Part shown: one piece after another, positions 20,991 through 24,806 of the stretch
Layout of the letters: each line of letters begins with the position of its first letter
Numbering within the stretch: position 1 is the first letter of the stretch
NCBI GenBank assembly: GCA_030765065.1
Contig: CM060979.1
Coordinates: forward strand, 16,273,001 to 16,337,000
Direction: 5' to 3'
DNA length: 64,000 nucleotides
Source of the DNA: Deroplatys truncata
Taxonomy: Eukaryota > Arthropoda > Insecta > Mantodea > Mantidae
Notes under the pieces: generated by a model
The model's database searches: none
The model's input: the letters and a program-made list of their open reading frames with translations, nothing else
Told to the model about the DNA's origin: nothing
Translations under genes and position numbers: made by a program

Positions 20991-22040
20991 CATCTATTTC
21001 TCCTTTTATAAACGATTTATCGATACTCACACTATATATACATATATATGTATATATCTATGTCATTAGTCAATAAGTAAACAAATGTTTATTTATATAT
21101 TACACTATAACCTCTAACGTTTTACCAAAAAAGGATTGTATAAACATTAAAGTTATAAACAATATGGTCTATCTCTCCCGTGAGGACCTGGTCCAACTCT
21201 CCCGAATGTCAGGGAGAGATGGACCAGCCTGCCATTTTGCTTCGCTTGGGGGCAGCGTCACCAGAACACGCCATGGGGCTACATTTACTTGTTTTACGCT
21301 TCCTAAGAAGCTTTGGTAAAAGTGTGATATCAAATAGTGTGTATAATACCTAATCATATAAATAGTGAAAAACAAATTGACATACCTGATTTTAATTATG
21401 CGGTATATAAATGAAATGCTTCAACAAATCAAGACGAAAACAACACTGTCACACATTCTCATCTGCCACTAGCAGGCGACACTACCGCTAACTCGCTCTA
21501 CTGGACGGTTCGAGAAATAATTAACTGGTCCATCTCTCCCGGAATTACCCTATATTATATCTGAAGGGGATTACTTTGAAGGGGAGAAAGTTAATGTTGA
21601 TGATTAAATAAAAATTCTTTATGAAAAACAAAAATTCCTGTTACTTTTTTACCACATCCCGTGAATAGTCCCTCAAGCGCACAGATTCTCATGCAACTGC
21701 AATAAGCACATACCTTCGACGTAGAAGAAGTTGGAAATTATGTCCCTGTGCCAACACACATTTGAACAAAATTTTCATTAACACTCACTAATTCTTCATG
21801 GCCATGTAAATAAAACCATGCTTCGTACGCAAAAAGAAATTAAACGCGGATCATCAATATTACCCAATTCCCAATTGCAGAAGTTAATTCCACTAACGTT
21901 ATCGCGTGGTTACAATTCCTGGTTGATTTCTTAGAGATTTTCTTCGACTTTGTTCTAACTTTCTACTTTCTCCACCACTACCCAGTAGGTAGAGAAGGTG
22001 TTGCCATCCACTTAAAAATTCGATATCGAGATTTCACCAG

Positions 22041-23612
22041 GTCTTTCGCTTCGTGCTCTCATCGAAACAACATGGGAAGAAAGAAGAAAACCGCCGCAGC
22101 CGCAAAGCCCGCTCCTTGCGAGGCAACCATCGCCATCGCCGACGAAGAAGATGACCAGCTTCCCGCCTCTTCGCCGCCGCCAGTCGAAGCATCCAGCGCC
22201 TCCTCTCCCATCAGCGCAGCCAACCACACACCGCTGACCAGCGTGCCTGCACGCTTCTCCGCTGTTGTCCGGGGAGTGCACCGTCAGCTCCCGGACAGTT
22301 TGTTGCTCACCGCCGCCCAGCGCTTCTGGCCGTCTGCGGCCAAGGCGACTAGGATTAAGAACGACAGAGGTCCCACACCGCTGGTCCGTCTAACCTTCGT
22401 GGAGGAGGAAGACTACTCGGCGGCCCTACACGCAGGAATGCCCTTATTAGGGCAAACCCTGGTGATCGAGGCCAGCCGCAGTGTGCGACCAACTCCATGC
22501 CGCCGCTGCTGCCTATACGGGCACACCGCCGCATTTTGTGACGCCGCACCCCGCTGCCACTACTGTGGCAACGGGATCAACACCTCCGACTGCAGGGCAC
22601 ACGACCTGAGACACCGCCGCCGCTTCTGCGCCTCCTGTGGGGGCAAGGGGCACTACACTGGCCAGGCCGTCTGCCCACTCTACCCTCGTAGAGCCACGCC
22701 GAACTCCTCAGAGACACCGCAGAACCTCACACCTACGACGCCGAACATCACTTCATCCAGCGACTCGCCACAGATCCAGGAACAACTAGTAGCCACGAAC
22801 CAACTCCTCCAACAGCACACCACGACCAACACAACCATCATCGAAGCCATCCAGGACCTCCACGCTGAGATGCTAAACCTTTCCAGCAGGCTGAATACCC
22901 TGGAAGAGCAGATCAGCGCGAAGTTTAATGGAATCGCCGATATCATAGACGAATCCCACGACGTTACCAAGAAGCGTCTGACCAACAACATGAACAGCCA
23001 CTTCAACGAACGACAAGAATGCTTGGACCAAATAAACAGACGCACCCTGGACATGGACAGCTGTGTCAGTAAGATGTTAATCGCCATAGAGACATGCTTC
23101 ACAGACGTCATCACGCGCATCAACGAGACCAACATGGAAACCCTTGCTGAGACCGACAGACTACGACAGCCACCTCCTCCAGTATATCATCATCATCAAC
23201 AACGACGTGCCAACTCCCGGAGATAACAGGCCCGGGATTGGAGCCTCCATCTCCTGCTAACTCACCACCGACACTCCGATGCCCGGAGGTAACAGGCCCG
23301 GGCTCGGTACCATCATCAACTGTTAAGCCACCACTGTTTTCTAGGTTACTGTCAGGGCCTCGGCCATGACCTTTACCTATTCCCCACTGAGGAGTGTGTC
23401 CACTTTGGACCTCTCCGTTTTCTACTAATTACCCACGAACCGCAGGTTTGCTTCGGCGGTACCAGCCAACACGATGCCAATTATGCCCCCAATAAATAGC
23501 GCCACCACAGTACAATATCCTTCTTTTCCTCTTCCTTTTTCCTTTCTACAACCTTTATATATAATCTGTTTTTCCTTAGACCTTTATTCCTGTTTCCCCC
23601 CCCCCAAAAAAA
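22041..23612 (+). mobile_element. Gag-only LINE-like retroelement (half-LINE), apparently full length
   Basis: A GC-rich unit is placed inside an AT-rich B repeat. TTCACCAG lies on both sides (22033-22040 and 23613-23620) as a target duplication, and the host repeat resumes at the same point (AAATACATG). The unit has a 31-base leader, one intact ORF, a 3' untranslated part with AATAAA near 23491, a C-run and a short A tail (23606-23612). No reverse transcriptase or endonuclease is present. The structure matches an ORF1-only, non-autonomous non-LTR element, comparable in plan to mammalian HAL1 or Drosophila HeT-A. A 3'-intact LINE with an internal loss of ORF2 is the alternative. Confidence 0.78.
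22072..23226 (+). CDS. Gag-like ORF1 protein with three zinc knuckles and a coiled coil (jockey-like LINE)
   Basis: The uninterrupted frame encodes 384 residues. Residues 1-55 are basic then Ala/Pro/Ser-rich and probably disordered. About residues 70-145 resemble the domain that precedes zinc knuckles in insect jockey-like Gag proteins (PLVRLTFVEEEDYSAAL, GQTLVIEASR). Three knuckles follow: CRRCCLYGHTAAFC, CHYCGNGI...H...C, and CASCGGKGHYTGQAVCPLYP. The last resembles the final knuckle of jockey-clade Gag. Residues about 235-365 have heptad-like leucine and isoleucine spacing (QEQLVATNQLLQQ, IIEAIQDLHAEMLNLSSRLN) and likely form a coiled coil. The C-terminus is Pro/His/Arg-rich. Such proteins bind RNA and package the transcript. 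The start at 22072 is the first ATG after the element's 5' end. GC content is far above the surroundings, and absence of any stop suggests recent insertion. Confidence 0.8.
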   Translation: MGRKKKTAAAAKPAPCEATIAIADEEDDQLPASSPPPVEASSASSPISAANHTPLTSVPARFSAVVRGVHRQLPDSLLLTAAQRFWPSAAKATRIKNDRGPTPLVRLTFVEEEDYSAALHAGMPLLGQTLVIEASRSVRPTPCRRCCLYGHTAAFCDAAPRCHYCGNGINTSDCRAHDLRHRRRFCASCGGKGHYTGQAVCPLYPRRATPNSSETPQNLTPTTPNITSSSDSPQIQEQLVATNQLLQQHTTTNTTIIEAIQDLHAEMLNLSSRLNTLEEQISAKFNGIADIIDESHDVTKKRLTNNMNSHFNERQECLDQINRRTLDMDSCVSKMLIAIETCFTDVITRINETNMETLAETDRLRQPPPPVYHHHQQRRANSRR

Positions 23613-23907
23613 TTCACCAGAAATACATGTTTTGGGGGCCCCTGAATCCAAATAAAGCTTTTTCGGAAACATGTCCATGTGTGTGCGTGCGCCCTCTTGT
23701 GTGTCTATGATCAGCATAACTCAAAAACGAAAAGTCGGATAAATATCAAACTTCCAGGATGCGACACAAAGATTTTCAAGAAAATCCCCCAACCCCAACA
23801 CGCTTTAATGGAACATTTTTCGAAAATTTTGATTTTCTAAAAAAAATGGCTCTAACAATTTTGATTAAAGCAACATATATTAAAGATATTTACATAAATA
23901 AAATATA

Positions 23908-24806
23908 CGAGACCTGTTCAAAATTTCCGGAATCTTGTCCACAAAATTTTCCTACGCTTACCTTTTACTTATTGGTCTCCTTCAAAATACTCTCCTCCAG
24001 AATTGATACACCGCTTCCAGCATCGTCTCCACTTCCAGAAGTAGTCTTGGTACGTCTCTTTTTGGATCGCGCGAAGCGCCGTCAGCAAATGTTCCTTTAT
24101 CTCGTCTATCGTTGCAAATATTCCTTCTTTCAACGGAGTTTTCAAATTTCGAAATAAAAAATAATCCGCAGGGGCCAGATCTGGAGAGTACGAAGGATGA
24201 GGCAGCACAGATATCGTTTTTTGTGCAATAGTCACGCACCAACAGGGATGAATGTGCGGGTGCGTTATCGTGATGCAAGAGCCATGTATTGTCTCGCCAC
24301 ATTTCAGGCCGTTTCGTTCTCACATTTTCTCACAGGCGCCACAACCCATCCCGATAGTCAGTCTTCGATTGGCTCGCACAATTTCGTTTAAGTTCCTGAC
24401 ATGACCGTCATCGAAGGGCGTCCTGAACGAGGGTCATCTCTAACTTCCATCCGGCCATTTTTAAGCCGCGTGAACCATTCGTAACGCCGAGTACAGCTTA
24501 AGCACTCATCACTGTAGGCTTCCTGCATCATTTGGTGTGTCTCTGTAAAGGTTTTCTTGTGTTTCACGCAAAATTTAATGTAGACGCGTTGCTCCTCTAA
24601 CTCTGCCATCTCGAAATTCGCAAGCTGTGCAACACAACGTTCTACTCAATACAACTTTGAGCAATAATTAACAGATATAGAATAATGAAACTTCTAGCAG
24701 TTACGCATTAAACACAGACGTGTGCAGGGATGCCAACCGCATTTCGCTGCAATACTCCATTGGCGCAAAATTACGAATGTTCCGGAATTTTTTGAACAGA
24801 CCTCGT
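23908..24806 (-). mobile_element. Mariner-like element, internally deleted
   Basis: Inverted ends read CGAGGTCTGTTCAAAA then TTCCGGAA, with TA on both sides (23906-23907, 24807-24808). It lies in the same B repeat as the gag-only LINE: the left flank ends AAATAAAATA and the right flank continues TCTACCTTGAATTCTCTGGG as in other B copies. The length of about 0.9 kb is short for mariner (near 1.3 kb). Confidence 0.88.
23969..24609 (-). pseudogene. Mariner transposase remnant with internal deletion
   Basis: From 24609 it reads MAELEEQRVYIKFCVKHKK, YEWFTRLKNGRMEVRDDPRS and GRPSM, the N-terminal HTH and linker. Soon after (near 24390-24310) it jumps to KMRTKRPEMWRDNTWLLHHD and NAPAHSSLLV, omitting the first catalytic aspartate region. 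It shifts frame to HPSYSPDLAPADYFLFRNLK and ends CINSGGEYFEGDQ. The second and third aspartates are present. The element cannot encode an active enzyme. Confidence 0.83.

What the first reader, a model, noticed from the sequence alone, without database searches (positions are those of the whole stretch)
22041..23612. ORF1-only (half-LINE) retroelement with an intact 384-residue gag-like protein
Seen: a GC-rich unit bounded by an 8-bp duplication (TTCACCAG) inside a B repeat, with a 31-base leader, one uninterrupted ORF with three zinc knuckles, a 3' untranslated part and an A tail. No reverse transcriptase is present. Known: HAL1 in mammals and HeT-A in flies have Gag-only plans and borrow reverse transcriptase. 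Inference: this is an insect half-LINE family mobilised in trans by a jockey-like partner. The ORF with no stop against heavily decayed neighbours suggests a young insertion or retained coding.
Basis: partly seen in the sequence, partly recalled or inferred. Interest (0 to 1): 0.75.

Follow-up and report, generated by a model that had tools for sequence, protein, structure and literature searches.

The report
Gag-only retroelements with borrowed LINE tails
This is one copy of a large family of mobile elements that make only an RNA-packaging protein and seem to get copied by a complete, jockey-like element because they carry a folded RNA tail like that of such elements.

Summary
Confirmed. Window 22041-23612 is an ORF1-only retroelement: 31-nt leader, intact 384-codon gag-like ORF, 3'UTR, A-tail, 8-bp target duplication, inside a repeat whose empty copies span the site. 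Of the 40 best-scoring genome places, 33 (window included) run leader to tail without ORF2. ORF1-end patterns of three subfamilies count 281, 111 and 173. Of 100 listed 3'UTR places, 73 follow an ORF1 directly; 27 are unresolved.

The 3'UTR is homologous to 3'UTRs of jockey-like LINEs with open ORF2 frames (best: 69% over 151 nt, E 8e-16); two hairpins are shared, one with compensatory changes. The ORF1 is not of the type read in such LINEs: it matches (about 39%) the ORF1 of another LINE group, whose 3' end differs. Two other ORF1-only elements carry another LINE's tail (87-96%).

So these are half-LINEs that seem to pair one gag lineage with tails of others, unlike HAL1. Trans-mobilisation is inferred; an unsampled parent LINE with this ORF1 is not excluded.

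The parts
22033..22040 (+). left target site duplication TTCACCAG
   Evidence: empty sites
22041..22071 (+). 31-nt leader; its start (CTTTCGCTTCGTGCTCTC, or ACTTCGCTTCGAGCTCTC in other subfamilies) recurs in full-length copies
22072..23226 (+). ORF1, gag-like, 384 codons plus stop
22498..22674 (+). Cys/His (zinc knuckle) region, residues 143-201: one canonical CCHC and two looser clusters
   Evidence: sequence; (zf-CCHC_4 below threshold); homology to a LINE ORF1
22771..22971 (+). probable coiled coil, residues 234-300
   Evidence: several sub-threshold Pfam hits there; inference
23216..23268 (+). first copy of a 53-nt direct repeat (77%) over the ORF1 end and start of the 3'UTR
23282..23334 (+). 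second copy of the 53-nt repeat; similarity to the L030 subfamily becomes high from about 23263
23227..23605 (+). 3'UTR ending in a C-run; partly homologous to 3'UTRs of jockey-like LINEs
23351..23370 (+). hairpin 1, shared with LINEs, with compensatory changes
23389..23416 (+). possible middle hairpin; a hairpin of other sequence lies at this place in LINE59
   Evidence: inference, not counted for covariation
23442..23466 (+). hairpin 2 (GGTTTGC-TTCG-GCGGTACC), shared with LINEs
23606..23612 (+). A tail
23613..23620 (+). right target site duplication TTCACCAG

Best explanation
It is a non-autonomous, gag-only non-LTR retroelement (half-LINE). It is transcribed from its leader and translated into an RNA-binding ORF1 protein that coats its own RNA. 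The 3'UTR folds into hairpins that the ORF2 protein of jockey-like LINEs in the same genome recognises, so that enzyme nicks DNA and reverse-transcribes it by target-primed reverse transcription. SHOWN: anatomy, family, absence of ORF2, target duplications, dN/dS below 1 in ORF1, 3'UTR homology and shared hairpins with LINEs that have open ORF2 frames. INFERRED: RNA binding, recognition by the LINE enzyme, the transposition itself. On present sampling the element is a chimera: gag related to one LINE lineage, tail to another.
For: Family: 33 of the 40 best-scoring places (window included) align leader to tail; direct repeats of 6 nt or more at both ends found by scan in 16 of 21 copies, 2 more by eye, 3 not (L018, L023, L027) (no chance control run); 38 uninterrupted host-repeat places at the site. 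Coding: first ORF of 363 codons or more in 15 of 22 elements, one of them (L012) frameshifted near its end; NG86 dN/dS 0.25-0.63 in 11 of 12 within-family pairs, 0.43-0.50 in 7 of 7 pairs with L030 or L014b. Partner: window 3'UTR against LINE59 69% over 151 nt, E 8e-16; LINE60, 61, 62 E 2e-9 to 4e-8; LINE56 E 2e-4 (E-values for a set of 15 short sequences); LINE56 scores above 300 of 300 shuffles. Hairpins 1 and 2 on 9 sequences: 93.1% of cells paired (0 of 500 shuffles reach it; best slid version 42.3%), covariation score 0.194 against a mean of 0.095 (0 of 500). Two other ORF1-only elements carry LINE55's tail: L029b 87% over 303 nt, L011b 96% over 113 nt; that tail also lies about 1.3 kb behind another RT hit, at C1:210356299. 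The L056/L057 LINE family has many copies 99-100% identical in RT with long open frames.
Against: The last about 120 nt of the window 3'UTR lie outside the match to LINE59, and no LINE with the same terminal sequence was found among those whose 3' ends were read. The window 3'UTR gave no blastn match to LINE53, 54 or 55, and L053, L054, L055, L032, L047 and L051 did not beat the shuffles. On all 15 sequences hairpin 2 shows no excess of double changes (2 pairs, equalled by 369 of 500 shuffles). All double changes are in hairpin 1, the structure was drawn from these same sequences, and relatedness can inflate such counts. WIN-L023 dN/dS is 0.92, and no significance test of dN/dS was made. 27 of 100 3'UTR places could not be read.
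Confidence: 0.8

Rival explanations
1. HAL1-type origin: the elements descend from a complete LINE that had this same ORF1, a jockey-like ORF2 and this tail, and lost ORF2; the parent is extinct or unsampled.
For: Known for HAL1, which arose several times from L1 (PMC5753468, passages). Only about a dozen LINE groups were looked at here, and ORF1 was read in four (L032, L038/L041, L057, L058), so such a parent could have been missed. Subfamilies exchange parts.
Against: The two ORF1s read from LINEs with related tails or tails shared with other half-LINEs (L057, L058) do not match the half-LINE ORF1 profile (E 5, against 6e-44 for L038); single blastp comparisons find only weak similarity (best E 4e-5 for L057). 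They carry PRE_C2HC, the half-LINE ORF1 does not. The LINE group with the related ORF1 has another 3' end in 6 of 6 places read.
Confidence: 0.4
2. No specific partner: any LINE enzyme copies these RNAs through their A tail, as L1 copies Alu, and the shared 3'UTR hairpins serve something else, such as RNA export or translation.
For: A tails end the complete copies, and no target consensus is evident by eye in the flanks printed (not tested).
Against: The same two hairpins recur in 3'UTRs of several half-LINE subfamilies and of LINEs, and two half-LINEs carry a nearly identical LINE tail.
Confidence: 0.15
3. Processed copies of a host gene encoding a domesticated gag protein.
For: Intact ORF with dN/dS below 1.
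Against: Several ORF1 subfamilies, fixed leader, tails shared with LINEs, 565 ORF1-end pattern places in all.
Confidence: 0.02

Closest known systems
HAL1 (half-L1) of mammals
   Same: encodes ORF1 protein only, no ORF2, depends on a LINE
   Different: HAL1 is a derivative of its partner L1 (PMC5753468, passages). Here the ORF1 is of another type than the ORF1s read from LINEs with such tails.
HeT-A of Drosophila, with TAHRE and TART
   Same: gag-only, RT supplied by others; some head-to-tail neighbours seen (L014, L023, L027)
   Different: HeT-A transposes to chromosome ends and never to interior places, and its Gag resembles that of TAHRE (PMC5537684, passages). Here copies lie inside contigs C1-C16 with target duplications.
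SIDEs such as Persaeus (partner CR1 Zenon)
   Same: non-autonomous retroelement that shares sequence with a LINE
   Different: SIDEs are short internal-deletion derivatives of their partner (PMC6740152, passages); here a complete ORF1 is kept.
SINEs with LINE-derived tails
   Same: 3' part shared with the partner LINE (PMC7245038, start of abstract in the listing)
   Different: protein-coding; no RNA-gene head was noticed in the 31-nt leader (not searched with Rfam).

Membership tests
half-LINE (HAL1-like plan) | ORF1 only, no ORF2, in full-length copies | tested here: met
   33 of the 40 best-scoring places leader to tail, no ORF2 match inside 21 elements
half-LINE (HAL1-like plan) | TPRT-type ends: target duplication and A tail | tested here: met
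   16 of 21 by scan, 2 by eye, 3 not
HAL1 proper | ORF1 derived from the ORF1 of the partner LINE | tested here: not met
   for the two ORF1s read from LINEs with such tails (L057, L058); unsampled LINEs remain
HeT-A | confined to telomeric head-to-tail arrays | tested here: not met
   interior places on C1-C16; target duplications
SIDE | short internal-deletion derivative of the partner, without its proteins | tested here: not met
   complete ORF1
jockey clade | RT phylogeny | not testable with these tools
   the element has no RT; the name jockey-like for the LINEs rests on PRE_C2HC in ORF1 and recall; no tree with reference RTs was built
mobilised in trans by a jockey-like LINE | shared 3' recognition structure | tested here: met
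   the terminal about 120 nt are not shared with LINE59
mobilised in trans by a jockey-like LINE | retrotransposition dependent on the partner ORF2 | not testable with these tools
   needs a cell assay

The most novel reading that the evidence does not exclude
An independent, long-lived clade of gag-only retroelements: its ORF1 has diversified (down to about 33% identity between subfamilies) without ORF2, and its members repeatedly acquire 3' tails from whichever jockey-like LINE is active, so that gag and recognition tail evolve as exchangeable modules.
Probability: 0.45. Interest if true: 0.78.

Novelty: new variant of a known kind. Interest (0 to 1): 0.6.

Why it matters
Why a parasite that cannot make reverse transcriptase should keep its own gag is an open question. 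Here three ORF1 subfamilies share one tail, and other ORF1-only elements share the tail of a different LINE with a long open ORF2. That gives natural swaps for testing which part, gag or tail, decides mobilisation, and what structure a jockey-like enzyme recognises.

Tried and rejected
Rejected: that only this copy lacks ORF2. Rejected as partner by 3' end: the LINE group that encodes P0001, although its ORF1 is the nearest found; in 6 of 6 places read (L047-L052) its 3' end is a GGCTGAAGAGGG stem-loop with simple repeats. Rejected: the LINE in L032, which ends in GATTGCTG repeats.

Led nowhere: Pfam and PDB sequence searches of ORF1 gave only sub-threshold or chance hits. The single-sequence structure prediction (ticket) was not finished at any of fourteen collecting calls (last). 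Covariation of hairpin 2 alone over 15 sequences was weak. Alignment A2 was cut too short for hairpin 1 and was replaced by A3. The RVT_1 search returned places but no loci.

Literature: nine searches of the held open-access library showed, in the 8-20 (once 2) rows listed each time, no report of arthropod ORF1-only LINEs with an ORF1 foreign to the partner. Most subscription papers are not held, and the HAL1 origin paper was not available.

Full report
OBSERVATION. The joined flanks match 38 other places across the site in one piece, at 78-83%, so this is an insertion into a repeat. GC is 55.9% in the unit and 37.2% in the window.

FAMILY. The genome (G000, unnamed, 4.29 Gb) gave 46 matches in 40 scored places out of 2356 first-look candidates; the tool scores only the best candidates. 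Of the 40 places, window included, 33 run from the leader (position 16 or earlier) to the tail (1556 or later); 7 are shorter. Of 21 elements looked at with flanks, nearly all begin at the same leader and end in the same C-run or A-tail (L028 starts at 127, L027 ends at 1456). Direct repeats of 6 nt or more at both ends were found by scan in 16 of 21, two of these partly A-runs; 2 more (L022, L025) are visible by eye; 3 (L018, L023, L027) gave none or a spurious one. Pattern counts over the whole genome at up to 3 mismatches: 3'UTR 32-mer 150; ORF1 ends 281 for the window type, 111 for the L030 type, 173 for the L023B type. Of the 100 listed of those 150 3'UTR places, 67 were tied to an ORF1 copy by lists (39 window type, 26 L030 type, 2), L031 by alignment and five more by the L023B list: 73 of 100. 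The other 27 are unresolved, since only 100 places a search are listed and letters had run out.

CODING. Of 22 elements compared, 15 have a first ORF of at least 363 codons; L012 among them is frameshifted near its end. NG86 dN/dS, window against: L018 0.31, L016 0.33, L027 0.37, L012 0.39, L025 0.60, L023 0.92; all 12 within-family pairs 0.25-0.63 but for that 0.92; the 7 pairs with L030 or L014b 0.43-0.50. No significance test was made. Eight copies (L014-L016, L018-L022) are 98.8-99.7% identical to one another; the window copy's nearest relative among those compared is 97.0%. So the family holds recent copies, and this is not one of the youngest.

MODULES. L030 and the window element share the first 100-200 nt (90-96%) and the 3'UTR from about position 1223 (93-99% in 100-nt windows from 1251), while the middle falls to 44-85%; ORF1 dS is 0.60 where the UTR is 93% identical. 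L023 holds a head-to-tail array B-A-B in which B has a different ORF1 (frame of 478 residues in one copy; 42-46% to the window ORF1) with a related leader and a 3'UTR 87-91% identical to the window's. Two more ORF1-only elements (L029 plus strand, L011) end in a different tail.

THE TAIL. 3'UTRs of eight RT-bearing LINEs were read behind their RT or ORF2. With +1/-1 scoring the window 3'UTR matches LINE59 (69%, 151 nt, E 8e-16), LINE60 (E 2e-9), LINE61 (E 4e-8), LINE62 (E 2e-9) and LINE56 (E 2e-4); LINE53, 54 and 55 gave no match; E-values are for a set of 15 short sequences. In a separate test LINE56 beat 300 of 300 shuffles while L053, L054, L055, L032, L047 and L051 did not beat theirs. The last about 120 nt of the window 3'UTR are outside the LINE59 match. 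L029b matches LINE55 over 303 nt (87%) and L011b over 113 nt (96%). A LINE55-tail 35-mer has 2511 places at up to 2 mismatches, one of them at C1:210356299, about 1.3 kb behind an RT hit at C1:210357604, the same distance as in LINE55; that this RT is of the same LINE group is inferred from its near-equal profile score.

THE HAIRPINS. A motif of the type GGTTTGC-loop-GCGGTACC occurs once in each of 15 3'UTRs examined, 7 half-LINE and 8 LINE; the search expression was written after seeing several of them and no chance control was run. On the 9 sequences of one type, hairpins 1 and 2 pair in 93.1% of cells (shuffled mean 86.2, 0 of 500 as high; best slid version 42.3%); 7 cells change on both sides (mean 3.0, 2 of 500); covariation score 0.194 (mean 0.095, 0 of 500); the number of pairs with a double change (3) is not unusual (165 of 500). 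The double changes are all in hairpin 1. The tool warns that relatedness, and a structure drawn from the same sequences, can inflate these. On all 15 sequences hairpin 2 pairs in 75.4% of cells (5 of 500 shuffles; slid at most 48.9%) but shows no excess of pairs with double changes (369 of 500).

THE GAG IS NOT OF THE PARTNER TYPE. A profile of 11 half-LINE ORF1s (frames taken stop to stop, so some rows hold flanking residues) hits the ORF1 of the P0001 LINE group (L038 E 6e-44, L041 E 9e-42) and not L057, L058 or L032 (E 5 each); single blastp comparisons with these three find weak similarity (best E 4e-5 for L057, 7e-4 for L058, 2e-5 for L032). L057 and L058 ORF1 carry PRE_C2HC (E 4e-4, just below the curated cut-off, and 9e-8); the L038 ORF1 does not, nor does the window ORF1. 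In an ML tree of 16 ORF1s the half-LINE and P0001-group ORF1s stand apart from the other three with 100/100 support, though long branches meet and the inner order is open. The P0001 group has a different 3' end, in 6 of 6 places read. Hence the chimera reading; it rests on the LINE groups sampled, and the ORF1s of LINE53, 54 and 59-62 were not read.

WORKS LIKE / IS. It works like HAL1 or HeT-A (gag kept, RT borrowed). It is not HeT-A (dispersed) and, on the groups read, not a half of its partner as HAL1 is (PMC5753468 and PMC5537684, passages). Names such as jockey-like, and the reading of histone H4 and mariner in flanks, are partly recalled.

Noticed in passing
L023 (C16:556876753-556884338): Head-to-tail B-A-B array of three ORF1-only elements of two subfamilies with about 10 nt between them; further abutting neighbours in L014 and L027.
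   Followed up: partly
L021 and L022, 3' flanks: The flanks share 1606 nt at 99%; an ORF in L021 contains MSGRGKGGKVKGKS, which looks like the start of histone H4 (recalled), so two copies may lie near histone genes.
   Followed up: no
L016:1220-6239: A half-LINE copy sits inside ORF2 of a P0001-group LINE; other members of that LINE group have open ORF2 frames of about 966 aa in this genome.
   Followed up: partly
L057 (C1:59090300-59095320): LINE family with many copies 99-100% identical in RT and long open ORF2 frames, probably recently active.
   Followed up: partly
window 23969-24323, minus strand: Two overlapping frames that look like remains of a mariner-type transposase (recalled resemblance), just downstream of the element.
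   Followed up: no
L047-L052: P0001-group LINEs end in a conserved stem-loop GGCTGAAGAGGG...CAGCC followed by a short simple repeat.
   Followed up: no
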